Shown here: one piece after another, positions 32,570 to 60,822 of the stretch
Layout: each line of letters starts with the position of its first letter
Numbering within the stretch: the stretch's first letter is position 1
Assembly: GCA_019931185.1 (NCBI GenBank)
Contig: JAINDK010000010.1
Coordinates: 1 to 64,000, forward strand
Direction: 5' to 3'
Source: Bryobacter sp. CoA8 C33
Lineage (GTDB): Bacteria > Acidobacteriota > Terriglobia > Bryobacterales > Bryobacteraceae
DNA length: 64,000 nucleotides
Notes under the pieces: model-generated
Seen by the model: the letters and a program-made list of their open reading frames with translations, nothing else
Databases searched by the model: none
What the model was told of the DNA's origin: nothing
Position numbers and translations under genes: made by a program

Positions 32570-32574
32570 CGTTC

Positions 32575-34382: not shown

Positions 34383-34386
34383 CTCG

Positions 34387-37464: not shown

Positions 37465-37503
37465 AGATCGCTGTTTGCCACGCTATCATAGAAAGCATTG
37501 CGC

Positions 37504-38139: not shown

Positions 38140-40753
38140 GATTCAAATACACGTTCACCCCCGGTGCGTCCATTCCCGAACCATGGACCCGGTAATTGCG
38201 ATCCAATACATTCTCCACCGCTCCCATCAACTGCCACTGCTCGCCCACTGGTAGCCCCATTCTCACCCCCAGCGCCGCCCAACCCGCTGTCGAGCGGTAC
38301 AGCGGAACGCGCACCGTGTCCCCCACCCCCGGCAAGACTCGGTTCTGTATCTGCAAGAGAGTTTCGCCCGTCGGTCGGAACACACCGGTGGCATCCACAT
38401 AAGGAGTGACCCGCGTTGCTCGGAAGAAGGTCGCGATGTCGCTGCGCCGGAAACTCGCCCCGATCCGCTCATCATCCATATCCCCTCCCGACAGCCGCCG
38501 TTGGACCCCCATGACGCTTAGTCCCACTTCGGTCCACGGCTTCCGCCCTCCTGGGCTATGCCGCAGCTTTACCGTACCTGCCTGCGGGGGCAGGCGCCTG
38601 ATATTCCGGTTCGGGTTCAGGTCCCGCCCCAGTATGTAGCTGTAGCTCGCCTCCAGGGTCAGCCGTCGCGTCATCGAATAAGCGCCCATCGTCTCCATGC
38701 CGTAATAGCGCGACGCTCCATCATTGACAAACGCCTTTACCGCCCTGGGGTCGAGCGCCGTCGCCACGGTCACCACGCCCTGCGCCCGCTGTGCCGCCGT
38801 TGGCGCAATCACTGTCACCGGCAGCCCCGCCAACTGCGCCGGCACATTTCCGGCCGGAAACAGCAGCGTCCTCCGCACGATCGGGTCGCTCAAGTCCGCG
38901 TTGAACAGTTGCACGCGTCCCCACCACCGCTTCCCGCTCAGCCGCACGCCAAACTCGTAGTTCATCAGCGACTCGGCCGCCAGCGCCCGCAGCGCCTGCC
39001 CCTTCGACAACGCCCCTTCTCCCGCATCCGTGCTCAACAGCGCCCCGGCGTTGATCACCTCGGAAGCAGGAATCTCATACCCCAGATCATTCAGCCCCAG
39101 CGCCCCCAGATCATTCAGGTTCGGCGCCCGAAACCCGCGGCTCACCACTCCATGCACCCCCAGCCACCCCGCAACGTCATACCGCAGACTTGCATGGAAC
39201 GTCGTATCGCGAAACCACAACGTATTCTGGGGGTCCGCAAACCGCACACTCGACCATCGCACTCCCCCCGCTGCCCGCAGCTTCCGGCTCAGTTGCACAC
39301 TCCCCTGTCCAAAAGCTCCGAAGTTTCCATACCGCGATCCCGCCGGATACAGCGCCCGCGGTCTCGTCACCACCCCACTTACCGGGTTCCTTACATCCCG
39401 GCTCGCATCGATGTGCTCGTCATACGCATCCCCCCCAAAGCTGTAAATCACCCTGCTCCCCCAATGCCCCGCTGCCTGCCCCGTGTATCCATAAACATTC
39501 ACGCGGGCCAGGTCGGTCGTCACTGCATCCGTAGCCAGCAGATTCTGCCGCACGCTCCCGTCGGTCTGCTGGTTAAACGAAAACGTCCCACTCACAGTAT
39601 CGAATCCCCTCTTGCCCAGGACCTCATGGCGCCCATAGAACCAGTTCAACTTCTGTGGCGTCAGGTCTGATCGCAACCGCCCCAATCCCCCCAGCAGATC
39701 TTTGTAGATTCGCGAATTCGTCTGCTCTCCCCGCTGGTAGTTCAGCGTCAGCAACTGGTCCGGCCGCAGCCGCACAGCCAGTTTCGTCTCCGCGCCATAC
39801 TGCCGGAATGCCGTATCCTGCTGCCGGTTCCCCACGAGATCCCGCACCGCCCCCAGCGGCATTCCGAAGAAGCGATGAAACACATTGCGCGAATCCAGTC
39901 CCCGCCCTCCGCGCAGATCATTGTGCGCCCGTCCCGACGCCCCCACCAGCCAGAACACCTTCTCATTCGAAATCGAAAACCGTTCCGCCGCCATACCTGA
40001 CAGGTCCGCCGTTGCCCCGGCCAAACTCACACGCCCATGCTTCTGCCAACCCCCGCTTCCGAACTCCGGCGCTTGCGTCGATACATGGATCGTTCCCCCC
40101 AGCGAATCACTCCCATACTGCACACCCGTTGGCCCCAGCAGCGCCTCCACGCGCTCGGCCTGGCTCGGCTCCAAAAACGCCAGATACTGGTTCGGCCCTG
40201 ATCGGAACGTCGAGTTATTGAAGCGGATCCCGTCCACTAGATTCAACACCTGATACCCAGTCAGTCCACGCAAAAACGGCGACACCTGCGCCGTGCTCGT
40301 TTGCTGCACCATCACATTCGGTAGCCCCTCCAGCGCATTCCCCACCGTCTGTAACGGCCGCGCCGCAATCTCCTCCCGGTTCACCACCGCCACCACATGC
40401 GCGCTGCTGGCCGATTCCTCCGCTCGCCCGCGCACCGCGCTCACCGTCAACCGCGTGTACACCGAGGCCGGCTCCAACTCAATCTCACCGCGATACTTGC
40501 CGTCCACCACCAGTTCCCGCCCCGCAAAGCCCTCTGTTTGGATTCGCAACTGTACCGTCCCGTGGCTGTCGCCCTCCCACACAAACCGCCCCTCACCATC
40601 CGTCTTCAGCGTTTTCAGCAGAGTCCCCGTACCGCTCCGGATCTCCACTATGGCTCCGGAAATGGCCCTCTTCTTCGGGTCTACCACGCGCCCCTCCACC
40701 TCACCCCACGCGCAACTCCCCCAAATCAATACCAGCGCCAGCAATCCCTTCAT
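38123..40753 (-). CDS. TonB-dependent receptor with N-terminal carboxypeptidase-regulatory-like domain
   Basis: 876 residues from ATG 40753 (MKGLLALVLIWGSCAWG); an ATG six codons upstream also opens the frame. Residues about 20-95 form a CarboxypepD_reg-like domain (VEGRVVDPKKRAISGAIVEI). The plug follows with LPNVMVQQTSTAQVSPFLRG and YGSDSLGGTIHV. The rest is an outer-membrane beta-barrel ending in NVYLNLSYRF, with the terminal Phe expected for barrel insertion. The cargo is unknown. The start lies 60 bp from the damaged ECF sigma gene on the other strand, which may once have regulated it. Confidence 0.92.
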   Translation of the reverse strand: MKGLLALVLIWGSCAWGEVEGRVVDPKKRAISGAIVEIRSGTGTLLKTLKTDGEGRFVWEGDSHGTVQLRIQTEGFAGRELVVDGKYRGEIELEPASVYTRLTVSAVRGRAEESASSAHVVAVVNREEIAARPLQTVGNALEGLPNVMVQQTSTAQVSPFLRGLTGYQVLNLVDGIRFNNSTFRSGPNQYLAFLEPSQAERVEALLGPTGVQYGSDSLGGTIHVSTQAPEFGSGGWQKHGRVSLAGATADLSGMAAERFSISNEKVFWLVGASGRAHNDLRGGRGLDSRNVFHRFFGMPLGAVRDLVGNRQQDTAFRQYGAETKLAVRLRPDQLLTLNYQRGEQTNSRIYKDLLGGLGRLRSDLTPQKLNWFYGRHEVLGKRGFDTVSGTFSFNQQTDGSVRQNLLATDAVTTDLARVNVYGYTGQAAGHWGSRVIYSFGGDAYDEHIDASRDVRNPVSGVVTRPRALYPAGSRYGNFGAFGQGSVQLSRKLRAAGGVRWSSVRFADPQNTLWFRDTTFHASLRYDVAGWLGVHGVVSRGFRAPNLNDLGALGLNDLGYEIPASEVINAGALLSTDAGEGALSKGQALRALAAESLMNYEFGVRLSGKRWWGRVQLFNADLSDPIVRRTLLFPAGNVPAQLAGLPVTVIAPTAAQRAQGVVTVATALDPRAVKAFVNDGASRYYGMETMGAYSMTRRLTLEASYSYILGRDLNPNRNIRRLPPQAGTVKLRHSPGGRKPWTEVGLSVMGVQRRLSGGDMDDERIGASFRRSDIATFFRATRVTPYVDATGVFRPTGETLLQIQNRVLPGVGDTVRVPLYRSTAGWAALGVRMGLPVGEQWQLMGAVENVLDRNYRVHGSGMDAPGVNVYLNLSYRF

Positions 40754-40812
40754 GACTTGCCAGACTAGCATTAAACAGTTTTCAAAACCGTGAATCTGAG
40801 ATGGACTGTTTC

Positions 40813-41376
40813 ATGAGCGACTCCGACATCACCCTGCTGCTTGACCAGTGGGGCCGTGGCGATCTCTCCGCCCTCGACCGTCTCGCGCCGCTCGTCTATC
40901 CACAACTGCACTCCATTGCCGCTTCCTATCTTCGTCGCGAGCGAAAAGGGCAGTTCCTGCAGGCCACCGGGCTGCTCAATGAGCTCTTCCTTAAATATCA
41001 AACCCGGCGCGAAGCCCGCTTTGAAAGCCGCGCCCACTTCTAAGCTCTCTACGAAAAGCTTATGCGTTTGGCTCTCATCGATCACGCTCGCTCGGCGGCT
41101 GCCAGCAAGCGCGGAAACGGCACACAACCCGTCCCCCTTCATGAGGAGATGCCATGGGTCGATGCCGCCGGCCCCGCCATGCTCGATCTCGACCGCGCCA
41201 TCTCCGAACTCGAAACCCTCGACCCCGAACAGGCCCGCATGATTGAACTCCGCTTCCTTCTCGGCTGCAGCGTCGAAGAAACCGCAGAGCTCCTCAGCGT
41301 TTCCTGCTCCAGCGTCGACCGCAAAGTGCGCCTCGCCCGCGCCTGGCTCTTCTCCCGTCTCCACGATTCTCCATGA
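40813..41376 (+). pseudogene. ECF-type sigma factor interrupted by an in-frame TAA
   Basis: Both halves lie in the same frame. From ATG 40813 (alternative 40801) the first half reads MSDSDITLLLDQWGRGDLSA and ends RFESRAHF, then TAA at 41041-41043. After it, ALYEKLMRLALIDHARSAAA runs to a normal C-terminus with the region 4 helix-turn-helix (FLLGCSVEETAELLSVS). Family members normally have HF(Y/F)A at the stop, so a single change of a Tyr codon to TAA explains it. The family is the TIGR02999-like ECF group usually paired with Ser/Thr kinases, and a kinase gene follows. Functional only if the stop is read through or the second half restarts at ATG 41062. Confidence 0.8.
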
Positions 41377-41427
41377 CCGCCACACTCCATTTGACGTTTT
41401 TTCCCCGTCTCCACGCCCTATCCGTTT

Positions 41428-43844
41428 ATGACTCCCCACGAGCGCTGGCTCCGCATTCAGGATCTTTGTGAACAGGTCGAGGCTCTTCCCGAGTCCGATC
41501 GCGACGCCTTCCTCACCCGCGCCGAACCCGACGAGTCCCTTCGCGCCGAAGCCCGCTCCCTTCTCCAATCCCTCGACGGCGAAAGCCTCACCCGCGTAAA
41601 CCTCGGTCACAATCCCGACCCCCTCTTCCGGAGCAGATTGCCGGCTTTCGCATCACCGGTCTGCTCGGCTGCGGCGGCACCAGCACCGTCTACGCCGCCG
41701 AGCGCACCATCAACGGCATCACCCAGCCCGTCGCCCTCAAGCTTTTCCATTCCTATCTCACCGGTGCCGCAGCCATCGAACGCTTTCAGCGGGAACAGGC
41801 CATGCTCGTCCGCCTCGACCACCCCTCCATCTGCCGCATGCTCGACGCCGGCCTCACCTCCTCCGGCCAACCCTATCTCGTCCTCGAGCGCATCGACGGC
41901 CTCCCGATCGACGAATACGCCAACACGCACCGTCTCCCCGTCCCCGATCGCATCCGCCTCATCCTCAGCGCCTGCGACGCCATCGCCGCCGCTCACCGCA
42001 GTTTCATTGCCCACCTTGACCTCAAGCCCGGCAACCTCTTCAACACCCCCGGCGGCCATGTCTGTCTCCTCGATTTCGGCACTGCCAAACTGATCGACCC
42101 CGTCCATCCCCTCACCAACACGCGCCATCTCACTCCCCTCTACGCCGCTTCCGAGCAGCTCCGGGGCGAAGCCGTCTCCACCGCCTGCGACGTCTACAGC
42201 CTCGGCATGCTGCTCTACGAACTTCTGGCCGGGGCCAACCCCTTCAGCGGAACCTCCCTCGCCGCCGTCGCCGAGCGCGCCGCCGGCGACTCCCATCCCC
42301 CCCGCATGGCCGCGCGCGTTACCGAACAGGCTGCCCGCGACCGTAACCTCACCGTCAACCGCCTCCGTTCCCTCCTCGACGGCGACATTGATCGCGTCGT
42401 CGCCCGCGCCCTCGCTCACGATCCCCACGATCGCTACCCCTCCATCACGGAATTTGCCGAAGACCTTCGCCGCTACCTGGAGAGCCGGCCCGTCCTCGCC
42501 CGCCGCCAGACGGCCGCCTATCGCCTCAGAAAGTACGTCTCCCGCAACCGCACCCTTCTCGTCCTCTCCGCTTTCCTGCTGCTTTCCGTTGCCATAGCTG
42601 TTCTGTTCGGCTGGCAGGAACGCCAGAAGGCCATCGCTCAGGGCAGGCGCGCCCAGGCTTCCTCCGACTTTCTCCTCTGGCTCATCTCCAGCTCCAATCC
42701 CATCTACGGTGGCCGCCGTGACATGACCGTCCTCGATCTGCTCTCTCGTGCCGACGAGCGCCTCGCCCGCGGCGATCTCGATGACGAGCTCGTCACCATC
42801 GAGCTCGAGACCAATCTCGGTTCCTATCTCTTCCAGTCCAGTTAGGAAGCCCGCGCCCTCGCCATTCTCGAGCGCGCCCGGCGCCGTTCGGCTCAGAACG
42901 ATGCCCCGAACACAAAGCTCACCATTGCCGCCACCTTTGCTTCCCTTCATCTCAGCCGCGGCGATTGTCCCGCCGCCATACGTGCTTCCTCCGATGGCGA
43001 CAACATCCTGTCTTCCCACCGGCGGGACATCCCCGCCTACCGCCAGATCGGGTTTCTCATCAATCGCGATCAGGTCCGCTCCGATTGTGAAAACGACCCC
43101 AGTGGCGCCCTCACGCTCGAGGCTGTCTCTCTCCTCCCACAGGTTCCCGACTCCGGTCTTTCCGCCGGCATGCCCGCCCCCCTGTTCAAGGCTCTCATCC
43201 TCAACGGCTACATCCGCCTCCTCGTGCGTCAGGCCAAACCGGCTGAAGCCCTCACCGTCGCGCGCCAGGCCCTCGATCTGGCCAGCCGCGCCCCCGACGG
43301 CCGTAACGTTCGCATCGCGCTACTCCAAGGCCGTGCCGCCGCTGAATACGCGGCAAAGGATGTCGCCGCCGCCGCCCAATCCCTCGAAGAGGCCGCCACC
43401 CTGGCGGAATCCACCGCCGCCCCCTTCGAAGCCATTCGCCTCAAAGTCATGGCGGGCCAACGCCTCGCCGAAGCCGGCAGAACAGACCGTGCTCTCGCCC
43501 TCGCCAATCAGGCCCTCACCCTCGCCGAAGCCGGCTCCGCCGAACTGACTCAAACCCGCTGGATGATTCTCATCGACGCTGCCATCACTTACTTCCGTGC
43601 TGGCCACTGTGAAAAAACTCCCGCCCTCCTGCGCGAAGCAGACCAGTTCACCGCCGGTAAAATGCCCCCGCAATGGAAAGGTAATCGCCTTGCCGTGGAG
43701 TGCATTTGTCACGCTCGCGCCGGTAAGTCCGCCGAGGCAAAAGTCATTGCCGATCAAGCGCTTGCCGCCGCCGGTGCTACCTGGGCGCCGAACTCGAGGT
43801 TCCGCAAAAAAGTAGAGTCAATACAAATGAAGGGCAGGGAATGA
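41428..43844 (+). pseudogene. Membrane Ser/Thr protein kinase with TPR-like tail, frameshifted and nonsense-mutated
   Basis: The N-terminus (MTPHERWLRIQDLCEQVEAL) is in one frame up to about 41630. The kinase domain continues in another frame: IAGFRITGLLGCGGTSTVYA (glycine-rich loop), PVALKLF (ATP Lys), IAHLDLKPGNLF and LLDFGTAK. So an indel lies near 41600-41630. A membrane helix (LLVLSAFLLLSVAIAVLFGW) precedes a sensor region that meets an in-frame TAG at 42843. The same frame then runs to 43844 with helical repeats (PAEALTVARQALDLA). The HRD Arg is replaced by Leu. Together with the damaged sigma factor upstream this is a decaying signalling pair, unless the lesions are sequence errors. 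Confidence 0.8.
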
Positions 43845-43876
43845 GGGGAAGGAGGGGCGAAACCGGCGGGGCCAAA

Positions 43877-43952
43877 TGGTGAGTCGGGTGGGATTCGAAC
43901 CCACGACCACCGCATTAAAAGTGCGATGCTCTACCAACTGAGCTACCGACTC
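43877..43952 (-). tRNA. tRNA-Lys (anticodon TTT)
   Basis: On the minus strand 76 nt fold into a full cloverleaf: acceptor GAGTCGG/CCGACTC, D arm GCTC/GAGC with the AGTTGGTA loop, anticodon stem TCGCA/TGCGG with loop CTTTTAA (anticodon TTT), T arm GTGGG/CCCAC with loop TTCGAAT, discriminator A and an encoded CCA. A TATACT (43972-43967, minus) 14 bp upstream could be its -10 element; no good -35 is seen. Confidence 0.97.
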
Positions 43953-43966
43953 ACGCAGACAATAGT

Positions 43967-43972
43967 AGTATA
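43967..43972 (-). promoter_or_regulatory. Possible -10 element for tRNA-Lys
   Basis: TATACT on the minus strand lies 14 bp before the tRNA 5' end, the right distance for a start point a few bases upstream of the mature tRNA. The -35 region (about 43990-43995) does not match consensus and overlaps the start of the divergent oxidoreductase gene. Confidence 0.3.
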
Positions 43973-43982
43973 GCAAGACAGC

Positions 43983-45011
43983 ATGAAAGTTGGACTCATT
44001 GGCACCGGCGCCATCGCCCATAAACACGCCCAGGCCTACAAAAACATTGGCTGGGAAATTGTTGCGGTAAACAACAAAACAGAATCGCGCGGTCGTGCTT
44101 TTGCCGAACAATGGGGCGGCGTCTTCCTACCCGATTGGCGCGACGTCTGCACCCACCCCGACGTCGACTTCATCGACCTCTGCACCTTCCCCGACGTCCG
44201 CCTTGAGCCCCTCAAGCTCGCCGCCGATCACGGCAAGCACATCCAGGTCCAAAAGCCCATCGCCATCAAGGTCTCTACCGCCGAAGAGATGGTCGCCTAC
44301 GCCCGCGCCAAAAACGTCCGCCTCGGCGTCGTCAGCCAGGGCCGCTTCAACGACGCCATGCTCTTCCTCAAAAAGGCCCTGGATGCCAACCGCCTCGGCC
44401 GCGTCTTCCAGATCGACGCCTACGTCAAATGGTGGCGCAGCGAAGAATACTACTCCCGGCCCATTAAAGGCTCCTGGGCGGTCGAGGGGGGCGGCTCCCT
44501 CATCAACCAGGGCATCCACCAGATCGACTGGCTGCTATACCTCATGGGCGAGGTCCAGCAGGTCTTCGCGCAATGGCATCTTGGCGTCCGCCACAAGATT
44601 GAAAGCGACGATGTTCTCAGCGGCCTCGTCCGCTTCGCAAATGGCGCCACCTGCGTCGTGCAAACTTCCACCGCCATGTGGCCCGGCTTCAATGAACGCA
44701 TCGAAATCCAGGGCACCCGCGGCTCGGCCATCCTCACCGGTGACCGCCTGACCTTCTGGAAGGTGGACGGCGAAGACCCCGGCGATCCCGCTCCCGTGGC
44801 CTCCGATGTCTCGAGCGGCTCCTCCGACCCCATGGCAATTTCCCTCGCTCCCTTCGAGCGTACGTTTCTGAATTTTGGCGAAGCCATCCGTACCGGCGCC
44901 GACCCTCTCATCAGCGGCTACGAAGGCCTCCGCGCCCTCTCTCTCGTGCAGGCTCTCTACACCAGCGCCCGCGAGAACCGCCTCGTCACCCTGGGGCCGG
45001 CTCGTGACTGA
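43983..45011 (+). CDS. Gfo/Idh/MocA family oxidoreductase
   Basis: 342 residues. The Rossmann fold begins VGLIGTGAIAHKHAQAYKN. The family's EKP-like motif appears as VQKPIAIK, and the conserved catalytic-region helix is GSLINQGIHQIDWLLYLMG with the HQID His. It would oxidise or reduce a sugar or cyclitol with NAD(P). The substrate is not predictable. It overlaps the start of homoserine kinase by 8 bp, which suggests co-transcription without an obvious metabolic link. Confidence 0.92.
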   Translation: MKVGLIGTGAIAHKHAQAYKNIGWEIVAVNNKTESRGRAFAEQWGGVFLPDWRDVCTHPDVDFIDLCTFPDVRLEPLKLAADHGKHIQVQKPIAIKVSTAEEMVAYARAKNVRLGVVSQGRFNDAMLFLKKALDANRLGRVFQIDAYVKWWRSEEYYSRPIKGSWAVEGGGSLINQGIHQIDWLLYLMGEVQQVFAQWHLGVRHKIESDDVLSGLVRFANGATCVVQTSTAMWPGFNERIEIQGTRGSAILTGDRLTFWKVDGEDPGDPAPVASDVSSGSSDPMAISLAPFERTFLNFGEAIRTGADPLISGYEGLRALSLVQALYTSARENRLVTLGPARD

Positions 45012-45921
45012 TCAACACCCGTGGTGGCGCCTCCGCGTGCCGGCCTCCAGCGCCAACCTCGGCCCCGGCTTTGACGCCCTCGGCCTTGCCCTCAGCCCCT
45101 ATCTGCTCTGCCGCTTCCGCCGTGCCTCCACGCTCGCCATCCGCGCCACCGGTCGCGACGCCGACCAGATCTCAACGGGCGCGGACAACCTCATCTGGCA
45201 AACCGCCCTCACCGTCGCCGAGCACACGGCCGAGTCCATGCCTCCGATCGAGCTCGAAATCGAGAACGAAATCCCCCTCGGCAAGGGCCTCGGCTCCAGC
45301 GCCGCCGCGCTCACTGCCGGCGTCATCATTGCCGATGCCATCCTCGGCCTCAACTGGAAAACCCACCGCATTCTCGACGAAGCCGCCCGCATCGAAGGCC
45401 ACCCCGACAACGTTGCCGCCTGTGTGCTCGGCTCCATTGTGGCCAGCGCCATGGATTCGAGCGGCATGACGCGCGCCGTCCGGCTTGAGCTTCCTCCCAG
45501 CTTTGAGGTCGCCATCGTCGTTCCCGACTTTCCTCTCCCCACATCGAAAGCTCGTGCCGCTCTCCCCGACAGCTATTCGAAAGCCGACGCCGTCTTCAAC
45601 GTGCAGCGATCCACTCTCCTCATTGCCGCCCTCGCCACCGGTACGATCACGGCCTTCCCCGCCGCTCTCGAGGACCGTCTGCATCAACCCTACCGCCAGC
45701 ACCTCGTACCCGGCCTCGAAGAGATCCTCAAGCTCCGCGCTCCCGGTCTGATGGGCTGCTGCCTCTCGGGCGCCGGCCCCAGCATTCTCGTCTTCTACGA
45801 AAAAGGCCACCGCTCTGTTGTCCGCCACGTGCAGCAGATCTTCGCCGCCCACGGCCACCAGGCCGAAATTTTCGATTCCGAAGTCGACCGCCAGGGCTAC
45901 CGTCTGATCGAGGAAGCATGA
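45004..45921 (+). CDS. thrB: Homoserine kinase
   Basis: 305 residues from GTG at 45004, overlapping the previous stop by 8 bp. The frame is open further upstream but that part is a shadow of the oxidoreductase. The family start LRVPASSANLGPGFDALGL is complete, the GHMP kinase ATP loop is IPLGKGLGSSAAALTAG, and the C-terminal GHMP motif is GCCLSGAGPSILVF. It phosphorylates homoserine on the threonine pathway; aspartate kinase of the same pathway lies 16 kb away. The stop overlaps the cyclophilin start (ATGA). Confidence 0.94.
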   Translation: MTDQHPWWRLRVPASSANLGPGFDALGLALSPYLLCRFRRASTLAIRATGRDADQISTGADNLIWQTALTVAEHTAESMPPIELEIENEIPLGKGLGSSAAALTAGVIIADAILGLNWKTHRILDEAARIEGHPDNVAACVLGSIVASAMDSSGMTRAVRLELPPSFEVAIVVPDFPLPTSKARAALPDSYSKADAVFNVQRSTLLIAALATGTITAFPAALEDRLHQPYRQHLVPGLEEILKLRAPGLMGCCLSGAGPSILVFYEKGHRSVVRHVQQIFAAHGHQAEIFDSEVDRQGYRLIEEA

Positions 45922-46490
45922 TCTCCCGCCGCCACACTCTTTCTCTTCTTGCCGCCGCTCAAACAGAAAAGAACCTCCGTGTTGTTGTCCGCTTCGAAAC
46001 AACGTTGGGTGATATTGTTGTAGCCCTCTCGGGCGACCGCGCCCCGGGCACCGTCGAAAACTTCCTTCGCTATGTCGACGCTGGCCTCTACGACGGCGGC
46101 GTTTTCCACCGCACCGTCAAGATGGATAACCAGCCCCAGTCCCCCGTCAAAATCGAGGTCATCCAGGGTGGCCCCAATCTCGAGAAGAAGCAGTCCTTTC
46201 CGCCCATCCCCCTCGAGCGCACCTCCCGCACGGGTCTCAAGCACGTCAACGGCGCTATCTCCATGGCCCGGTCCGGCCCCGACACCGCGACCGGCGACTT
46301 CTTCTTCTGCATCGGCGACCAACCCGAGCTCGACTTCGGCGGCAAGCGCAACCCCGACGGCCAGGGCTTTGCCGCCTTTGGCCTCGTGCTCAAGGGGCAC
46401 GATGTTATCCGCAAGATCCAGAAATCTCCGGCCACCGGCCAGCGTCTTAGTCCTCCGGTGAAGATCGATCGCCTCCGCCGCGTCGAATAA
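45918..46490 (+). CDS. Cyclophilin-type peptidyl-prolyl isomerase
   Basis: 190 residues. After a short N-terminus (MISRRHTLSLLAAAQ, possibly a signal) comes the cyclophilin fold: FETTLGDIVVALSGDRAPG, YDGGVFHRTVKM (catalytic-region FHR), EVIQGG and ISMARSGPDTATGDFFFCIG. The FHR and the Q of the active site are present. Start overlaps thrB by 4 bp. The last 44 bp overlap the convergent TPR-like gene. Confidence 0.9.
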   Translation: MISRRHTLSLLAAAQTEKNLRVVVRFETTLGDIVVALSGDRAPGTVENFLRYVDAGLYDGGVFHRTVKMDNQPQSPVKIEVIQGGPNLEKKQSFPPIPLERTSRTGLKHVNGAISMARSGPDTATGDFFFCIGDQPELDFGGKRNPDGQGFAAFGLVLKGHDVIRKIQKSPATGQRLSPPVKIDRLRRVE

Positions 46491-47000
46491 CCCCCAAGGC
46501 CGCCTCTTTCACTTCGTCGGCCTCATAGTCGCGCCCGTTCTCCCGGAAATACGCCTCAAGCATCGTGTATACCTCGAGGTCGTTCTCATCCATGCGCAGA
46601 GCCTCGTGGCACCAGTTTTGAAAAGCTCTTACCTCGTCGATGCGCAGGCTCAGCTTCGCCAGCAACTTGGCGATGGCGGCTGTTTCCCGACCTTCCTCGA
46701 TAGCATGTTCGAGTGCGGCAATGGCTTCCCCGATGTGCCCTTGGGCAAGCAAATGCAGCGCTTTCTGGTAGAACTCGTCCGGCATCAGTCCTTTTGCAAC
46801 TCGAAGCTTCCCAGGATTCTCTTGTAAGGGTTGGTTTCCCTGAGGTTGTGCGAGCCGATCAGTTTGCCTCCTTCGAGGACGGCGCGGTACTCATCGACGA
46901 GCAAGCGTGGATCACTTGTTGCGAACAGGAGCGTACCGCTGTCAACGGCACAGTTGGCGAGCGGATAAGCAAGCCGGATTTTCTTCGCCGTATTCTCCAA
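46400..47000. other. Switch point of strand composition (GC-skew sign change)
   Basis: Hand counts of 60-base lines on the plus strand: 36301 C30/G7, 42421 C25/G11, 45061 C29/G14, 46381 C21/G16, 46561 C19/G15, 46921 C15/G21, 47461 C13/G19, 48241 C13/G30, 50281 C8/G29. The sign holds whichever strand is coding (PSD1 and the receptor left of the point, the MFS gene right of it, are minus-strand). No gap large enough for an origin lies here, since the genes overlap or abut. Confidence 0.6.
46447..46785 (-). CDS. Small TPR-like helical protein
   Basis: 112 residues, all helical. The repeat-like helices ALHLLAQGHIGEAIAALEHA and HEALRMDENDLEVYTMLEAY follow the small/large residue pattern of tetratricopeptide repeats. 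No signal peptide, no catalytic motif. The start overlaps the stop of the SGNH gene as TGATG, which favours translational coupling. Its 3' end overlaps the cyclophilin gene by 44 bp. Confidence 0.72.
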   Translation of the reverse strand: MPDEFYQKALHLLAQGHIGEAIAALEHAIEEGRETAAIAKLLAKLSLRIDEVRAFQNWCHEALRMDENDLEVYTMLEAYFRENGRDYEADEVKEAALGVIRRGGGDRSSPED

Positions 47001-47924
47001 GCCCAAGCTTCCGCTGCAGGTCTTCCCCTTCATTTCGACCATCAAGTCCATGGCATACTCGCCATCGAGAATCATCGCCTTGCCGCTCCACTTGCCGTTG
47101 AAGGCATCGATGGCGGTTTCAGCGGTGGGCGTCAACACCTTGGCCGTGCCGAAATTTGGCCGCGCAAGGTTCGTCAAGGCGCCCGCGCGCCACTGTTCGA
47201 CGGCGAAGTGAGCTGCCTGCACCAGCCAGCGTTGTGTTTCGTCACTCATCTTCAGGCGCAGGATGACGCCATTGGTGCCCTCGCAAGTTCTCGCGGTCAG
47301 GATCTCGACAAAGACGCAAGCTGTCAGGTAGGAGCCTTGCGGGGAGGGATGGGATCCATCGGGATCAAAGAGTTCGATTTGCGGCTGCGTCTGGCGGATC
47401 CTTTGCCAAGCGAGCCCGGCGGGGGCAATAGAGGCGCCAATCTCGCGGGCCGCCTCGCTGTAGGCATAGTTGAGTCCGCTTTGAAATTCCGGGTGGGCTT
47501 TTCTCGCCCAGGTCAGGTAGAGCAGAGGCTTGGCGCCTTTGCGTTGAATCTCTTCATTCCAGAACCGGGTCCAGCGCAGCAAACCGGCGGGGTCATTGAC
47601 GCCCCAGCGGGCCTCGACATAGCTCTGGCCGAGGGTCGATTGATCCTGCAGCACTACGACATCCCACTTGCCCGAGCGGAGATCGGTGAGTGCCGGTGTG
47701 AGGTTCCAGAGATCTTCGAGCGTGGCGCCGCCCCGGGTGGTGGATTTGACCTCGAGCCTTCTGCCCGGCTGGGCATTGGCGAGGGCCATGACCATGGCGG
47801 GCATCTCGTTGAAGTAAGTATAAGAATTACCGAGAAACAAGACGCGCAACGGTTCTTCGCCAAGGGGGGAGTTGGGCTGGGCGAGGAGGATTCCGGTCCC
47901 AATGAGGAGGGCGGCAAAGCGCAT
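46785..47924 (-). CDS. SGNH/GDSL-type hydrolase, exported
   Basis: 379 residues. A signal peptide (RFAALLIGTGILLAQ) precedes RVLFLGNSYTYFNEMP, the block I motif with the nucleophile Ser. Block V is DGSHPSPQGSYL, with the catalytic Asp and His. The last 130 residues form an extra beta domain (GKAMILDGEYAMDLMVEMKG). Probably an esterase acting on polysaccharide or lipid esters. Divergent from the thioesterase gene with only 15 bp between the starts. Confidence 0.85.
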   Translation of the reverse strand: MRFAALLIGTGILLAQPNSPLGEEPLRVLFLGNSYTYFNEMPAMVMALANAQPGRRLEVKSTTRGGATLEDLWNLTPALTDLRSGKWDVVVLQDQSTLGQSYVEARWGVNDPAGLLRWTRFWNEEIQRKGAKPLLYLTWARKAHPEFQSGLNYAYSEAAREIGASIAPAGLAWQRIRQTQPQIELFDPDGSHPSPQGSYLTACVFVEILTARTCEGTNGVILRLKMSDETQRWLVQAAHFAVEQWRAGALTNLARPNFGTAKVLTPTAETAIDAFNGKWSGKAMILDGEYAMDLMVEMKGKTCSGSLGLENTAKKIRLAYPLANCAVDSGTLLFATSDPRLLVDEYRAVLEGGKLIGSHNLRETNPYKRILGSFELQKD

Positions 47925-47939
47925 GAGTGCTATTTTTAC

Positions 47940-48704
47940 ATGTCAGCGATGTCCATCAGCGTGTTCAGCCAGCCAGCAATAGTGGGATTTTTCGATGCCG
48001 ATCCGGCACTCCGGCTTGCCCCCACGGCCTACTGGCGAATTTTCCAGAACGCGGCGGCGGGCCATGCGTCTTTGCTTTCGGCGGCAACGGAGGAGCTGCG
48101 AAAATCCGGGCAGACCTGGATGCTGTCCCAGATGCGCCTGGAAGTGAGCCGCCACCCGCGGCTGGGCGATTCGATTGTGGTGGAAACGTGGCCGAGCACG
48201 CGCATCAAGGGGGCGCGGGCTTATCGGGACTATGTACTGAAGAGCGAGCGGGGGGAGGTGCTGGCTCGCGGCGCGAGCCTGTGGGTCATCGTGGATCTGG
48301 CCACACGCCGGCCAGTACGAATTCCCGATAGCCTCGCCGCGCTCTCGGTCGATCCCGGCTATGAGATCCCGGCACTGACGGGGGCTCTCGCTATGCCGAC
48401 GGGTGAGGCGAGCAGTGCGCATTTTCGTGCCGTGTGGAGCGATGCCGATCAGAATGAACATGTCAACAATGTGGCATTGTTGCGTTGGTCGGTGGATGCG
48501 CTTCCGCTCCAATTTCTCGAGCGGTCGGTGCTGGTCTCGGCCGAGGCGCAGTACCGGGCGGAAGTGTCCGTGGGGGAGCAAGTTCAGGTGAAGACCTCGC
48601 TGGCGGACAACACCGCCACGCAAAGCATCCACAGCGGGGAGCGTCTTGTCGGGCTGGTATGCTCACGTTGGCGGAGCTTAGATGCCCCGCCGGTCGCCCC
48701 ATAG
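47940..48704 (+). CDS. Acyl-ACP thioesterase (FatA/FatB-like double hot-dog)
   Basis: 254 residues from ATG at 47940 (alternative ATG at 47949). The second hot-dog half contains DADQNEHVNNVALLRW, the counterpart of the catalytic N-x-H and VNN motif of plant FatA/FatB. The first half has QMRLEVSRHPRLGDSIVVET and IKGARAYRDYVL. It would release free fatty acids from acyl carrier protein. A 663-codon open frame extends upstream to 46713 but is antisense to the SGNH and TPR genes. The 3' end overlaps queE by 27 bp. Confidence 0.85.
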   Translation: MSAMSISVFSQPAIVGFFDADPALRLAPTAYWRIFQNAAAGHASLLSAATEELRKSGQTWMLSQMRLEVSRHPRLGDSIVVETWPSTRIKGARAYRDYVLKSERGEVLARGASLWVIVDLATRRPVRIPDSLAALSVDPGYEIPALTGALAMPTGEASSAHFRAVWSDADQNEHVNNVALLRWSVDALPLQFLERSVLVSAEAQYRAEVSVGEQVQVKTSLADNTATQSIHSGERLVGLVCSRWRSLDAPPVAP

Positions 48705-49355
48705 GAGCACGTGGAGGCGCGGGGAGTAGCGATAGCCCTTCTCCTTGCAGAGCTCGGCGATCCAAAGCGATTTTTCCTGCAGGGCGGCGGCGGCCCTTCC
48801 TTCGGGCATCAGCAAGACTTTTTGCGCGGCGGCGCCGGTTGTCTCGACGATCGAATCGATTTCGGCGAGGTCTTGGGGACTGTCGACAACAAACTTCAGC
48901 TGGTAGTCGCAGTGGGCCATCAATTGCCGCAGCACCTGGGGCTGCAGGCGGAGTTTTTCATGCCGCTCCTCCCACTGGAGATCGCCAAAGGGTGTGGAAT
49001 TCCGCAACTTCGGCGAGATGCTCATGAGGTCGCAGTCGATGGTGCGATAGACCGTGCCGGCGGTCTCAATGGTAATGTGCAGCCCCATGCGGCGGAAGCC
49101 TTCGCAGAGCTTGACGCTGTCCTCAAAGAGCATGGGTTCGCCCCCGGTGAGCACGACATGGCGCGAGCCGCTGCGGCCTACTTCGTCGAGAATCCCGGTG
49201 ATTTCGCGCTGCACGCCCTCGGCCTTCCAACTCGTGTAAGGGGTGTCACACCAGACGCAGCGCAAATTGCAGCCGCTGGTGCGGACAAAGACGCTGGGCA
49301 CGCCCACTAATGTGCCTTCTCCCTGCAGGGAGTAAAAGATTTCGCTAATCAGCAT
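48678..49355 (-). CDS. queE: 7-carboxy-7-deazaguanine synthase
   Basis: 225 residues. Radical SAM enzyme with the CX3CX2C cluster motif in [16 protein letters not shown] and the family start [29 protein letters not shown] follows. It converts carboxy-tetrahydropterin to CDG in queuosine and preQ0 synthesis. The start overlaps the stop of queC by 11 bp; the end overlaps the convergent thioesterase by 27 bp. Confidence 0.95.
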
Positions 49356-50031
49356 AGACGAGAGGATCCTGAATTCCCGCCTCGGCGAAGCCCTTTAAGC
49401 GCAATTGGCAAGCGTCGCATTTGCCGCAGGGGCGGGCGCCATCAACGGGGTCGTAACAGGTGAAGGTCAAGCCGCAGTCGAGACCTAATTCGCGAGCCAG
49501 TTGGGTAATGCCGGCCTTGGAGAGGTGGATGAGCGGAGTGTGGATCTTGAGGAAAGCCTGGCCCTCGACGCCGGCTTTGGTGGCTAGATTGGCCATCGTT
49601 TCAAAGGCGGCGATGAATTCCGGCCGGCAATCGGGGTAGCCGGAATAGTCGATGGCGTTGACGCCAATGAACAGGTCGGCCGCGCCAAGGACCTCGGCCC
49701 AGGCCAGGGCCAGGGACAGGAAGATTGTGTTGCGGGCCGGGACGTATGTGACCGGAATGCCGGATCCCATATCAGTTTCGTCCCGGTCTTTGGGGACGGC
49801 GATGTCGCTGGTGAGGGCCGATCCGCCAAAGCTGCGCAGGTCGATGCGCAGGACTTTGTGTTCGACGGCGCCGAGCGCCTTGGCAACGCGGGCTGCTGCT
49901 TCCAACTCGTAGCGATGCCGCTGGCCATAGTCGAAACTCAGCGCGTAGCAGGCAAAGCCCTGGCGCCGGGCGTAGGCAAGGCAGGTTGAGCTATCCATGC
50001 CGCCTGATAACAAACAAACGGCCCGCCTCAT
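49345..50031 (-). CDS. queC: 7-cyano-7-deazaguanine synthase
   Basis: 228 residues. ATP-pyrophosphatase loop [17 protein letters not shown] at the N-terminus and the zinc-binding C-terminal cysteines in [37 protein letters not shown] is typical. It makes preQ0 from CDG, the step after QueE. The start overlaps the stop of the upstream MFS gene as ATGA, and queE overlaps its end, so the three are one coupled unit. queD and queF are not in this window. Confidence 0.96.
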
Positions 50032-51230
50032 GCGCGCTTCTCCTTGGGGTAGAACAGTGTCAGAACAAATCCGGCAATGGGGAAGGCCACGAGAGAGAAC
50101 AGGGCATTGTGAAGCCCCGTTACCGCCGAGATGCCGCCAATGAGGGGGATGAAGAGGAAGCCGGCCATGCCCCAGGCGAAACCCATCATGAGGGCGGAGA
50201 CGGTGCCGGCTTGTCCGGGGGCGAGTTGTTGCCCCATGAGCACGTTAACGGGAATGGTGAAGAGAAGGACTAGGCCGCCGAGGGCGAGGCCGAGGAGTGA
50301 AAGCCAGCCGGTGGTGAGGAAAAAGAGGGCGAGAAAGGGTACGCTGCCGATCATCGAGATCAAGATGGTGGTTCTGCCGCCAAGGCGGTTGGCGATGGTG
50401 CCGCCGGTAAAGCCGCCGAGGGCGCCGCAGGCCAGATAGAGGCTCAATGCCTGGCTTGCTTCGGTGACGCGGAAGCCTCTTTCCTGGGTGAGGTAGAGGG
50501 GAAGGAACTGCGTGAAGGTGACCTGCACGATGGAACGGATGAAGACGAGAAAATAGAGGATCGTGAGGGGCTTCCAGACCTGGCGCAGCGGCTCGATGGC
50601 GAAAGACTGTCTTTTGCCCTGGCTGCCCTCGAGCTCGGGAAGATAGAGCAGGAGCAACCCGCTTACCAGAACGCCTGGGATGGCTCCGAGCCAACTGCTG
50701 TCCAAGCCGAACCAATCGATAATGCCGGCGAAGAAGGTTGGTCCGAGGGCAAGGCCCAATGTGCCAGAACTAATGAAAACGGCCATCCAGAATGGTTTGT
50801 TGTGTTCCATGCCGGCGGTGGCGCGGGCGCTGGCCTGGGGATGAAAGCTCGAGATGCCGAGGCCGCCCAGGACAGCGAGGAGCATCACCAAGCCGTAGTT
50901 GGGCGCCAAGCCGACGAGGGCAACGCCGAGTCCGGCCACGGCCGGAGCCAGGGTCGTGAATAGTTGCGAGTGCAATTTGTCGGAGAGATAGCCGAAGCCG
51001 GGCTGCGTGACTGAATTGGCGAAGACGAACAAGCCGGCGAGGAAACCCGCCTCGGTGAGGTTCAAGCCCATGCGGGTGGCGAGGTGCGGCTGGAGGGCGG
51101 CGAGGGCGGAACTATAAACATCGACAAAAAAATGGCCAATGCACAGTAAAATAAGAGCAGCGTAGATACGGCGTGACGCCGGAACAATGGCGGGCTGCGA
51201 AGCGGCGAGCGGATAACTGCCAGAACTCAT
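50028..51230 (-). CDS. MFS transporter, fosmidomycin-resistance-like
   Basis: 400 residues from ATG at 51230 (MSSGSYPL). An upstream in-frame codon at 51272 would run into the divergent rlmB start and is not preferred. Twelve helices are expected, with [20 protein letters not shown] and FGYLSDKL in the first pair of helices, resembling Fsr-type drug exporters. It is the first gene of an overlapping unit with queC and queE, so a link to deazaguanine compounds is possible, though nothing in the sequence proves it. Confidence 0.82.
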
Positions 51231-51252
51231 GAAGGGGACAATCTCAGTATAA

Positions 51253-51969
51253 ATGGCTGTTCTGATTGGCATTCATCCTGTCCGCGAGGCACTGCTGGCC
51301 GGACGTCCCATTGACCGTGTGCTCGTCGCCAAGGGAGCGGGGGGGCCGCGCATTCAAGAGATCGTGGATCTTTGCCGCCAACACAAGGTAGCGCTTCGTT
51401 TTGAGCCGCGGGAAGCGCTGGACCGCTCGGCGGGGGGCACGGCGCGCCACCAGGGGGTAGTCGCCTTCGCGGCGGAAAAGCGCTACGACACCTTTGACGA
51501 CATATTGGCTCAGGAACTGATCGTGGTGCTGGATGGGGTGGAGGATCCGCATAACCTGGGGGCAATTCTGCGGACGGCGTCGGCTGCCGGGGCCGGGGCG
51601 GTGATCATTCCCGAGCGGCGAGCGGTGGGTGTGAATGAAACAGTGGCGAAGGCGGCGGCGGGAGCGCTCGAGCATGTTCCGATCGTGCGGGTGACGAATA
51701 TCGCGCAATCGCTCGAAAAGTTGAAGAAATCGGGGTTTTGGATTTATGGTCTCGATGAGCGCGGGGAGCGGAACTACACTGAGGCCGCGTTTGATCCGAA
51801 GTCGGTGCTTGTGTTGGGCGCCGAGGGCCATGGGCTCCATGACAACGTGCGCAAGGGTTGTGACTTCCTGCTGCGGATCCCGATGTCGGGCCCGATACCA
51901 AGCCTGAATGTCAGCGTGGCGGCCGGTGTCGTTCTGTTTGATTGGAAAAGGCAGCGAGGTAAGTTCTAG
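51253..51969 (+). CDS. rlmB: 23S rRNA (guanosine-2'-O)-methyltransferase, RlmB/TrmH family
   Basis: 238 residues. The N-terminal substrate-binding domain begins LIGIHPVREALLAGRPIDRV. The SPOUT domain carries motif 1 (LDGVEDPHNLGAILRTASAAG), motif 2 (VLVLGAEGHGLHDNVRKGCD) and motif 3 (IPMSGPIPSLNVSVAAGVVL) that form the SAM-binding knot. RlmB methylates G2251 of 23S rRNA. The stop directly abuts the ggt start. Confidence 0.93.
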   Translation: MAVLIGIHPVREALLAGRPIDRVLVAKGAGGPRIQEIVDLCRQHKVALRFEPREALDRSAGGTARHQGVVAFAAEKRYDTFDDILAQELIVVLDGVEDPHNLGAILRTASAAGAGAVIIPERRAVGVNETVAKAAAGALEHVPIVRVTNIAQSLEKLKKSGFWIYGLDERGERNYTEAAFDPKSVLVLGAEGHGLHDNVRKGCDFLLRIPMSGPIPSLNVSVAAGVVLFDWKRQRGKF

Positions 51970-53631
51970 ATGCGTTTCCTGGTTTTCCTATTGGTGAGTT
52001 CTGCTCTGGCGCGCGATCCGGTACGGACGCGCAAAGTGATGGTCGTGGCGCAGGAACCGATTGCGACCGATGTGGGCGTGGAGATCCTGCGTAAGGGTGG
52101 GAACGCGTATGACGCAGCGGTGGCTGTGGGCTTTGCTCTGGCGGTTACCTATCCGAGCGCGGGCAATATCGGGGGCGGGGGCTTTGCTCTGGTACGCACG
52201 GCCCGGGGAGAAAGTAGTTTTCTTGATTTTCGCGAGAAGGCGCCGGCGAAAGCTACGCGGGATATGTACCTGGACAGCAAGGGCCAACCGACGCGGGAAT
52301 CGGTGATCGGCTGGCGCGCGGCGGGTGTTCCGGGAACCGTGCGTGGCCTGGCGATGCTGCATGCGAAATACGGGAAGCTCAAGTGGGGGCAACTGCTGGC
52401 GCCTGCCATCCGGCTGGCCGATCGGGGCTTTGAGGTTTCCTATGCGCTGGCCCGGGGGTTGTCTTCGGCCGGTGCGAAGCGGATGTTGAGCGGGTTTGCG
52501 GAATCGGAAAGGCTGTACCGGAATGGCGGAAAACTTTTTGAGGCGGGTGACCGGATGCGTCTGCCGGAGTTGGCACGAACGCTGAAGCGAATTGCGCGCC
52601 GCGGTCCCGATGAGTTTTATACGGGAGAAACGGCGCGGATTCTGGCCGGGGAGATGGCACGCAATGGCGGGCTGATCACCGGGGAAGACCTGCGCAACTA
52701 TCGGGCCGTGGAGCGCAAGCCGCTCGTGGGGAACTACCGCGGGCACGAGTTGATCGCGGCGCCGCCGCCGTCCTCGGGTGGTATCGGAATGATTCATATG
52801 ATGGCGATGCTCGAGCGGCTCGACTACGCGAAAGCGGGCCTGGGCAGTGCCCGTCATGCGCACTTGCTGGCCGAGGTGATGCGCCGGTACTATGCCGACC
52901 GCAGCTTTTTTCTTGGGGATCCAGACTTTGTCAAGATTCCTCTGGCGCGGCTGCTGTCGGCGGAATATGCTGCCAGCCGCGCCGGGACCATCGAGCCGGA
53001 GCGGGCTACGGCATCGAGTGCGCTCGATCATGGTGTGATTCCACCGGAAGAATCTCCGGAGACAACGCATCTGTCGATCGTGGATGGGCAGGGAAACGCT
53101 GTGTCGCTGACCTACACGCTGAATGGGGGCTACGGTTGTGGGGTCACCGTGCCGAGGCTTGGATTTCTGCTGAACAACGAAATGGATGATTTCTCCGCCA
53201 AGCCGGGGACGCCCAACATGTTCGGCGCCATCGGGGGGGAGGCGAACGCGATCGCGCCCAACAAGCGTATGCTGTCGAGCATGACGCCCACGATCGTGAC
53301 GAGGAACGGCAAGCTGCTGATGGTTGTGGGGGCGCCCGGGGGCACGCGCATCATTACCGGTGTCATGCAGGCGATTCTGCATGTGCTCGACTTCAAACTC
53401 AACATGCAGGACGCGATCGATACTCCGCGGCTGCATCACCAGTGGAAACCGGATACGCTTTACCTGGAACGCGGCTGGAGTCCGGACACGGTGGCAATTC
53501 TTGAGCGTATGGGGCACAAGGTGCAGACTGGTATTGCCAGCGTCGCCAACGTGCATGGCATTCTAGTGGAAGACCAATGGCTTCAGGGTGCTCCCGATGG
53601 CCGCACCAACGGCAAAGCAGCCGGTTACTAG
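51970..53631 (+). CDS. ggt: Gamma-glutamyltransferase
   Basis: 553 residues with signal peptide RFLVFLLVSSALARD. The self-cleavage site and new N-terminal nucleophile are in ETTHLSIVDGQGNAVSLTYT, the second-subunit substrate site in LLNNEMDDFSAKPGTPN, MLSSMTPTIV and GAPGGTRIITGVMQAIL. It hydrolyses or transfers the gamma-glutamyl group of glutathione in the periplasm. It starts directly after rlmB. Confidence 0.95.
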   Translation: MRFLVFLLVSSALARDPVRTRKVMVVAQEPIATDVGVEILRKGGNAYDAAVAVGFALAVTYPSAGNIGGGGFALVRTARGESSFLDFREKAPAKATRDMYLDSKGQPTRESVIGWRAAGVPGTVRGLAMLHAKYGKLKWGQLLAPAIRLADRGFEVSYALARGLSSAGAKRMLSGFAESERLYRNGGKLFEAGDRMRLPELARTLKRIARRGPDEFYTGETARILAGEMARNGGLITGEDLRNYRAVERKPLVGNYRGHELIAAPPPSSGGIGMIHMMAMLERLDYAKAGLGSARHAHLLAEVMRRYYADRSFFLGDPDFVKIPLARLLSAEYAASRAGTIEPERATASSALDHGVIPPEESPETTHLSIVDGQGNAVSLTYTLNGGYGCGVTVPRLGFLLNNEMDDFSAKPGTPNMFGAIGGEANAIAPNKRMLSSMTPTIVTRNGKLLMVVGAPGGTRIITGVMQAILHVLDFKLNMQDAIDTPRLHHQWKPDTLYLERGWSPDTVAILERMGHKVQTGIASVANVHGILVEDQWLQGAPDGRTNGKAAGY

Positions 53632-53644
53632 GCAAACCGACAAA

Positions 53645-54502
53645 ATGGAACATGTTCTTTCCACACACATCTGCGTGCAGCACCGGCTGACGACAGTCTG
53701 GCTTGACCGGATCTGGGAAGCGGGGATTCCCGCGGTTGAAATTTTCTGCGCGCGCCAGCACCTTGATTATCGGAACAAAGCCCAGATCCAGGAACTGGGC
53801 CACTGGTTTCGCGATGCCCGGCTCACACTCCACTCCCTGCACATGCCGATGTACAGCGACGATCAGTGGGGACGGTCCAGCCCCAATGCCGTGATCACGC
53901 TCACGGAACTGTCGCGGCCGCGGCGGCAGGAGATGGTGGATGAGATCAAGCGCGCGCTCGAGGTTGCCGAGGTCATTCCTTTCCGTTTTGCGATCCAACA
54001 TCTTGGAGTGGGCGGGGAAGCCTTCAATCTCCGTAAGTGGGATGCAGCGTTTACGGCGCTTGAGGAATTGAATCTGTTCGCGCGCCAGCGGGGAGTGGAC
54101 ATTCTGCTGGAAAACATTCCGAATGCGTTCTCAAGCGGCGAGCGGCTGAGGGGCTTTATCGAGATGACTCATCTCAGGAATGATTTTTGTTTTGATACGG
54201 GCCATGCCCACATCATGGGTGGCATCGAAAACGAGTGGGACGCGATGAAGGAGCGCGTGCGCTCGACCCATGTGCACGACAACGACGGAACGAACGACAA
54301 TCATCGCTTTCCCTTTCTTGCCGCCGATGCAACCGTCAACTGGAGCAAGACAATGAATCTGCTGCGTTCCCGATCGGAACAATATCCCTTGCTGCTCGAG
54401 CTGCGCGAGCACCCCGATATACCCAAGGCCATTGAATCGGCCGCTGAAGTTTTCCGCCGTCTCGAAGACATCGAGCCCTGGCAGGAAGAGGAATCTGAAT
54501 GA
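53645..54502 (+). CDS. Sugar phosphate isomerase/epimerase family protein
   Basis: 285 residues from ATG at 53645 ([15 protein letters not shown]). The frame is open 19 codons further upstream inside ggt. It has the xylose-isomerase-like TIM-barrel pattern, with metal-site residues in [11 protein letters not shown] (Glu), [12 protein letters not shown] (Asp, His) and [13 protein letters not shown] (His, Asp). The substrate is unknown. The stop overlaps the asnS start as ATGA. Confidence 0.86.
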
Positions 54503-55812: not shown

Positions 55813-55818
55813 GCGCCC

Positions 55819-57710: not shown

Positions 57711-57712
57711 CC

Positions 57713-60429: not shown

Positions 60430-60434
60430 AGAGT

Positions 60435-60800: not shown

Positions 60801-60822
60801 AGTTTGATCTTAAAGGATTCTT

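What the first reader, a model, noticed from the sequence alone, without database searches (positions are those of the whole stretch)
46400..47000. Sharp GC-skew sign change without an origin-like gap
Counts of individual 60-base lines show plus-strand C over G to the left (36301: 30/7; 45061: 29/14) and G over C to the right (48241: C13/G30; 50281: C8/G29). The bias does not follow gene direction. A change from C-rich to G-rich is the polarity seen at a replication origin, yet the genes here are packed without a gap, and dnaA, dnaN and gyrB are absent. Alternatives are an inversion or recombination breakpoint, a contig join, or an unusual origin some kilobases away.
Basis: partly seen in the sequence, partly recalled or inferred. 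Interest (0 to 1): 0.6.

Follow-up and report, generated by a model that had tools for sequence, protein, structure and literature searches.

The report
Many origin-like skew jumps in Bryobacteraceae
This soil bacterium's DNA switches strand composition abruptly at a point where gene order is unbroken, and similar switches recur every few tens of kilobases in other sampled parts of its genome, a sawtooth that in human DNA marks many replication start sites but is unexpected in a bacterium with one origin.

Summary
The switch is real: at 46,700 (range 46,600-47,100) skew runs from about -0.2/-0.3 to +0.1/+0.2, whatever the gene direction, beyond 20,000 permutations. It is no contig join or inversion breakpoint: congener G003 keeps gene order straight through it yet stays C-rich on both sides; in the right-hand block G000=G/G003=C outnumbers the reverse 954 to 186, just left it is 65 to 68. 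It is no conventional origin: skew fades to zero by 64 kb, then turns negative, no DnaA-box cluster lies there, and dnaA-dnaN-gyrB is on another contig. In 431 kb sampled from this genome, 7 strong up-shifts face 2 down-shifts, often followed by near-linear decline, like human skew N-domains. G003, G006 and G011 share the regional skew; one 200-kb control stretch of another family does not. Pooled, steep upward positions outnumber downward 40 to 7 (p=0.0018): clear in G000, weak in G006, not significant in G011. Best reading: dispersed, partly mobile replication initiation sites (confidence 0.5). Nothing here measures replication.

The parts
46600..47100 (.). Skew up-jump (best point 46,700), candidate fork-divergence site; lies in a 112-aa TPR-like ORF (46,447-46,785, -) and the 3' end of the next - gene
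   Evidence: Segmented fit; cumulative minimum 47,096; TPR match, E 5.8e-5 but below Pfam cut-off
22000..46600 (.). C-rich left flank: plus-strand skew -0.12 at 22-24 kb growing to -0.31 at 40-42 kb (weaker, -0.04, at 28-30 kb)
   Evidence: linear trend preferred over one step for 6-46.6 kb
47100..64000 (.). G-rich right flank: skew peaks at +0.19/+0.20 near 50-53 kb and declines to about 0 by 64 kb
   Evidence: linear trend preferred over one step for 50-88 kb of the contig
43875..59663 (+). Block spanning the jump that is collinear with G003 C18 (same order and orientation) but of opposite skew right of the jump
   Evidence: blastn; substitution counts
43877..43952 (-). tRNA-Lys (ttt), only tRNA in the window, 2.8 kb from the jump
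   Evidence: of five G000 up-shifts compared, two have a tRNA within 4 kb, three do not
43983..45011 (+). Gfo/Idh/MocA-type dehydrogenase, GC3 skew -0.56
44875..45921 (+). Homoserine kinase thrB, GC3 skew -0.50
45918..46490 (+). Cyclophilin-type peptidyl-prolyl isomerase, GC3 skew -0.51
46785..47924 (-). Protein with a sub-threshold match to DUF4886, GC3 skew +0.22
47952..48704 (+). Acyl-ACP thioesterase (both domains); start codon not fixed
48678..49355 (-). QueE-like radical SAM protein (below the equivalog cut-offs), GC3 skew +0.24
49345..50031 (-). QueC, GC3 skew +0.46
50028..51272 (-). MFS transporter, GC3 skew +0.46
51253..53631 (+). RlmB-type rRNA methyltransferase (51,253-51,969) and gamma-glutamyltransferase (51,970-53,631); GC3 skew +0.29 and +0.25

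Best explanation
The jump is a place where replication forks, averaged over evolutionary time, diverge: a replication initiation site or zone. It is one of many dispersed along the chromosome. Between neighbouring sites forks arrive from either side with a probability that changes with distance, so leading-strand G excess declines roughly linearly from one site and becomes C excess before the next, giving the factory-roof profile. The sites are not marked by DnaA-box clusters and need not be the dnaA-dnaN locus; DnaA-independent or recombination-dependent initiation is possible. Sites turn over between species, partly: this one is absent from G003, whose nearest switch lies about 36 kb further along. 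Shown: a strong regional skew independent of gene strand, the jump, its creation by substitution in unrearranged DNA, repeated up-shifts in the same genome. Inferred: that fork direction is the cause, that many sites fire, how they fire.
For: Gene GC3 skew tracks that of opposite-strand neighbours within 8 kb: r = 0.74 in G000 (271 genes), 0.76 G003 (75), 0.59 G006 (821), 0.61 G011 (310), against -0.37 in the G028 control (99). Seven up-shifts against two down-shifts of at least 0.2 (6-kb means) in seven G000 contigs, 431 kb. Without C30 and G003, steep up positions outnumber steep down 40 to 7 (p=0.0018, 6 kb) and 46 to 7 (p=0.0115, 9 kb). C15 shows two successive roofs; in 11 stretches between up-shifts a line beats one step in 9, ties in 1, loses in 1. 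Across the jump the sister species is collinear, and G/C exchanges go 954:186 right of it and 65:68 left. Polarity is that of diverging forks (G-rich to the right), the same as at the 1,546 human up-jumps described in PMC4729899 (passages). Cyanobacteria that replicate from multiple origins without DnaA also have irregular skew (PMC7198777, passages).
Against: No replication data. Asymmetry is not significant in G011 alone (p 0.25-0.61) and by simple peak counts G011 has 4 ups to 7 downs; G006 alone gives p about 0.09-0.24; with 4-kb raw means the pooled test is p=0.22. Several up-shifts are ramps of about 10 kb, not jumps: 4 of 10 refined in G006 gave a steep slope with a negative step, as did 2 of the 8 starting points in G000 contigs; the first C15 shift is part step, part ramp; G003's has a range of 7.6 kb. 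Sharp down-shifts exist (C4 at about 5 and 33 kb). In 6 of 11 stretches a two-step model has the best BIC. No shared k-mer or DnaA-box enrichment at seven up-shifts. The T-with-G component expected of a leading strand is seen in G003, G006 and G011 but not in G000 (regional AT3 coefficient +0.01), and it is also seen in the G028 control (-0.31). A dnaA-dnaN-gyrB cluster with DnaA boxes is kept, as for an ordinary origin.
Confidence: 0.5

Rival explanations
1. One origin, scrambled chromosome: inversions and translocations have moved pieces between replichores, so the skew is a patchwork of old leading- and lagging-strand segments that relax slowly by mutation.
For: Sharp down-shifts exist (C4, G011); gene order outside the core block differs between G000 and relatives; the dnaA cluster is conventional; skew of collinear blocks correlates poorly between genomes (r=0.055 over 37 blocks, excluding G003).
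Against: The window's jump has no break in gene order against G003, and the difference was made by substitution; a breakpoint older than the split would have to relax fully in one lineage and hardly at all in the other. Gradients over 40-50 kb and the up/down asymmetry are not expected. In G006 the switch near C53 50 kb lies in collinear DNA of like polarity (-0.16 to +0.09 in G000, -0.09 to +0.07 in G006).
Confidence: 0.25
2. A strand-specific mutation process other than replication (recurrent break repair, R-loops, or unknown) acts outward from hot spots.
For: No origin motif was found at the jumps and the effect is local, tens of kilobases.
Against: Recurrent end resection exposes the strand whose cytosine loss would give the opposite polarity (argument from general knowledge, not tested). 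RNase HI is present in 16 of 16 genomes searched, so the R-loop-driven replication of rnhA mutants is not expected. Gene strand explains 5-7% of GC3 skew in G000, G006 and G011.
Confidence: 0.15
3. Artefact or chance: contig join, foreign insert, or ordinary fluctuation.
For: Draft assembly of 138 contigs; C2, C3 and C4 are short contigs with extreme skew whose origin was not checked.
Against: Collinearity with an independently binned congener through the jump; housekeeping genes on both sides; 0 of 20,000 permutations; the same behaviour in three other genomes.
Confidence: 0.03

Closest known systems
Skew N-domains ('factory roof') of the human genome (PMC4729899, passages)
   Same: Upward skew jumps with origin polarity and roughly linear decline to the next jump.
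   Different: Bacterial chromosome; spacing of tens of kilobases to about 100 kb rather than 0.5-3 Mb; much larger skew (third-position values up to 0.8); no replication map.
Cyanobacteria replicated from multiple origins without DnaA (Synechocystis 6803, Nostoc 7120; PMC7198777, passages)
   Same: dnaA kept; skew profile lacks the single V shape.
   Different: There the multiple origins were shown by experiment and the skew is described as irregular; here there is no experiment but a strong, polarised, sawtooth skew.
Multi-switch bacterial skews proposed as multiple origins (Xia 2012, PMC3269012, passages)
   Same: Several polarity changes read as several origins; same caveats on rearrangement.
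   Different: Those are AT-rich endosymbionts, a Mycoplasma and Synechocystis; the passages I saw do not test collinear relatives.
Canonical bacterial oriC (dnaA-dnaN locus with DnaA boxes)
   Same: Same polarity of skew change.
   Different: No box cluster, no dnaA/dnaN/gyrB at the jump; in G006 the dnaA-dnaN locus has no skew switch.

Membership tests
Canonical bacterial oriC | Skew changes from C-rich to G-rich | tested here: met
Canonical bacterial oriC | Cluster of DnaA boxes | tested here: not met
   7 sites with up to one mismatch in 64 kb against 6.46 expected; one (46,405) near the jump; 4 boxes within 3 kb of seven up-shifts against 3.9 expected
Canonical bacterial oriC | dnaA/dnaN/gyrB nearby | tested here: not met
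   They are on contig C19; the distance to the window is unknown because the assembly is in pieces
Canonical bacterial oriC | Single global minimum of cumulative skew | tested here: not met
   Contig minimum elsewhere; several strong up-shifts in the same genome; whole-genome plot not made
Inversion breakpoint or contig join | Break in gene order at the switch relative to relatives | tested here: not met
   Collinear with G003 on both sides, equal gap
N-domain-like skew | Up-jumps sharper than down-jumps | tested here: inconclusive
   Met in G000 and pooled (40 v 7, p=0.0018), weak in G006, not in G011
N-domain-like skew | Roughly linear decline between jumps | tested here: inconclusive
   Line beats one step in 9 of 11 stretches, but two steps have the best BIC in 6 of 11; stretches were chosen between up-shifts
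Multi-origin, DnaA-independent replication | Several initiation sites shown by marker frequency or fork mapping | not testable with these tools
   No reads or cultures
R-loop (oriK-type) replication through RNase HI loss | Absence of rnhA | tested here: not met
   RNase H family in 16 of 16 genomes

The most novel reading that the evidence does not exclude
A lineage of soil Acidobacteriota replicates its chromosome from tens of dispersed initiation sites, arranged in N-shaped domains like those of human chromosomes, with sites gained and lost between congeneric species without any change of gene order. Extrapolating seven up-shifts in 431 kb gives of the order of 80 per 5-Mb genome (an extrapolation, not a count).
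Probability: 0.35. Interest if true: 0.95.

Novelty: new variant of a known kind. Interest (0 to 1): 0.72.

Why it matters
Bacterial chromosomes are taken to have one origin; [quoted passage not shown] If fork direction explains this skew, Bryobacteraceae would be a new multi-origin group outside cyanobacteria, with an unusually clear record of where forks diverge, and comparison of congeners would let one watch origins appear and vanish in unrearranged DNA. If it does not, a strong strand-biased mutation process of unknown cause acts on these genomes. Either way, finding origins by cumulative skew, or completing metagenome bins by skew, would fail here.

Tried and rejected
Gene direction as the cause: rejected for G000, G006 and G011. 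For G003, strand alone explains 33% because strand and region are confounded there; my first G003 gene calls (68% coverage) were biased by the skew itself and were replaced.

DnaA boxes, tRNA genes, a shared k-mer, and a shared gene at the up-shifts: none found. tRNA scans covered the window and 102 loci; the distance to tRNAs was computed for five G000 up-shifts only. K-mers were tested on seven G000 up-shifts; the best p-values (about 1e-4 in 6,000-18,000 tests) are not significant. Genes next to the shifts: two-component hybrid kinase, TonB-type receptors, glycosyltransferase-like, P-type ATPase.

RNase HI loss: rejected. A fixed switch beside thrB: rejected; 38 of the 80 loci were profiled and show no common sign.

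Refined fits that failed: from a start at 27 kb on C4 the fit moved to the down-shift at 32.9 kb; from 50.5 kb on C53 it gave a small negative step on a ramp.

Dropped from counts: G000 contigs C3 (6.6 kb) and C5 (2.7 kb), too short; short contigs of G002, G004 and G007 were fetched but not profiled; G001 C92 (20 kb) is collinear with the left flank and C-rich but ends before the jump; G020 40 kb was only plotted.

Structure prediction and fold searches were not used; they do not bear on the question.

Full report
Observation. Two-kilobase skew is -0.17 to -0.32 over 38-47 kb and +0.08 to +0.20 over 47-54 kb. A segmented fit places the jump at 46,700 (46,600-47,100), size 0.33. Neither the window's cumulative range nor its largest 10-kb shift was reached in 20,000 randomisations each. 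Third-position skew changes from about -0.5 to +0.2/+0.5 across the jump in genes of both directions.

Setting. The window is the first 64,000 bases of a 125,528-base contig (C30) of a 5.05-Mb draft genome in 138 contigs. Named relatives with the closest thrB are Bryobacter and Bryobacterales metagenome bins of the Acidobacteriota. Around the jump lie ordinary genes: a Gfo/Idh dehydrogenase, thrB, a cyclophilin, a TPR-like ORF, a DUF4886-like protein, an acyl-ACP thioesterase, QueE-like, QueC, an MFS transporter, RlmB and a gamma-glutamyltransferase. rpoB and rpoC lie at 88.7-97.4 kb of the contig.

It is local. To the right the skew declines to 0 by 64 kb and is mostly -0.05 to -0.15 from 74 kb to the contig end; to the left it weakens steadily from -0.31 at 40 kb to about 0 near 16 kb. 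A single conventional origin at 47 kb would give a lasting sign on each side.

It is not a breakpoint. G003, a congener, whose contig C18 matches by length and coordinates the record 'Bryobacter sp. isolate Bin_54_2', is collinear with 26.9-63.2 kb of the window, except for a 3.5-kb stretch (40.4-43.9 kb) that is 0.4 kb in G003. The two aligned blocks that flank the jump are separated by 617 bases in both genomes. G003 is C-rich throughout this region; its own switch is at about 89-92 kb of its reversed contig, some 36 kb beyond the equivalent point, and is broad. In the right-hand block (47,305-59,663) G000=G/G003=C is 954 and the reverse 186; in 60,106-63,249 it is 185 to 58; in the three blocks just left it is 65:68, 50:82 and 103:121; further left 162:113 and 45:26; in rpoBC 240:108. 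The contrast was therefore made by base substitution in DNA whose order did not change. Which lineage changed was not determined.

It is one of many. In the same genome C15 shows two roofs in a row: up-shift near 5 kb, decline from +0.26 to -0.20 over 20-60 kb, up-shift at 66.2 kb, decline from +0.22 to about -0.29 by 108-120 kb; C53, C2, C4 and C19 each show one up-shift. These contigs were chosen for RNase H or DnaA-domain hits (C15, C53, C19) or by number (C1, C2, C4), not by skew. G006, a congener with a 4.26-Mb contig, shows up-shifts near 3,734, 3,848, 3,983 and 4,086 kb with declines between them, and others less clear, in a 1.0-Mb stretch; G011, another genus of the family, swings as strongly but with sharp falls too. 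G028, of another family of the order, shows little (200 kb around dnaA); that is one stretch of one genome, so the limits of the trait in the tree are not known.

Nature of the signal. A gene's GC3 skew is predicted by its opposite-strand neighbours (r 0.59-0.76 in four genomes, -0.37 in the control), while AT3 skew follows gene strand in G000, G006 and G011 (strand R2 0.71, 0.72, 0.50) but little in G003 (0.08). Regional AT3 goes with T where G is in excess in G003, G006 and G011 (-0.54, -0.23, -0.15) but not in G000 (+0.01); the control gives -0.31. The leading-strand signature is thus clear for G/C and mixed for A/T.

Shape. With strand-corrected GC3 and without C30 and G003, positions with a shift above 0.4 outnumber those below -0.4 by 40 to 7 (6 kb, p=0.0018) and 46 to 7 (9 kb, p=0.0115); by genome 27:3 (p=0.007), 8:3 (p=0.09) and 5:1 (p=0.35) at 6 kb. 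Raw skew gives p=0.22, 0.0065 and 0.011 at 4, 6 and 8 kb; an earlier test that included C30 and G003 gave 0.04-0.11. Neighbouring positions are not independent; the p-values come from sign flips of 30-kb or 50-kb blocks. A line is better than one step in 9 of 11 stretches, and a two-step model best in 6. Several up-shifts are ramps.

What is not at the jumps. DnaA boxes are at chance level. The dnaA-dnaN-gyrB cluster is on C19; near the dnaA-dnaN junction G000 and G006 share three one-mismatch boxes at the same spacing, two between the genes and one inside dnaA. In G006 no 6-kb shift above 0.085 lies within 20 kb of it. In G000 the cluster lies inside a G-rich domain whose up-shift is about 6.9 kb along the contig, beside an IS21-type helper gene.

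Turnover. Over 37 aligned blocks between G000 and G006 or G011 the skews do not correlate (r=0.055; 0.233 over 48 blocks with G003), but the picture is mixed: much of C15 and the C53 switch agree with G006 in sign, while C2, part of C53 and the window's left flank are opposite.

Mechanism. Diverging forks give the observed polarity. Many sites, with fork direction changing gradually between them, give the roof. Substitution in fixed gene order gives turnover of sites. I put this at 0.5; a scrambled single-origin chromosome at 0.25; another strand-biased process at 0.15. I found no account of such a pattern in Acidobacteriota in nine library searches, which cover open-licence papers only. A 2011 table lists 3 of 3 Acidobacteria chromosomes with ten or more skew switches (PMC3148964, passages), counted on 2-kb windows and not followed up in the passages seen; the Solibacter genome paper shows a cumulative skew in a supplementary figure that I could not see (PMC3174227, passages).

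Noticed in passing
L243/L244 (G000 contig C4), about 5 kb and 33 kb: Two sharp down-shifts (+0.28 to -0.12 near 5 kb; a fall near 33 kb) flanking an up-shift near 26-28 kb; a TonB-type receptor gene lies by the first.
   Followed up: partly
L018 (G000 contig C19) 5,835-6,605 and 9,660-11,701: An IS21-type helper gene lies beside the up-shift near dnaA, and overlapping genes on opposite strands there reach GC3 skew +0.77 and +0.73.
   Followed up: partly
L018:15340-15530 and G006 C3:1664622-1664813: Three one-mismatch DnaA boxes with identical spacing near the dnaA-dnaN junction in both genomes: a candidate oriC without a skew switch in G006.
   Followed up: partly
window 40,771-43,019: Two - ORFs with odd codon-position composition (GC1 0.80 in one) and no family match; probably wrong-frame calls over a gene read otherwise, or a novel protein. 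The stretch is absent from the collinear G003 contig.
   Followed up: partly
window 34,387-37,464: 1,025-aa protein of the planctomycete cytochrome type (PSCyt1, PSCyt2, PSD1, with a Laminin_G_3 domain).
   Followed up: no
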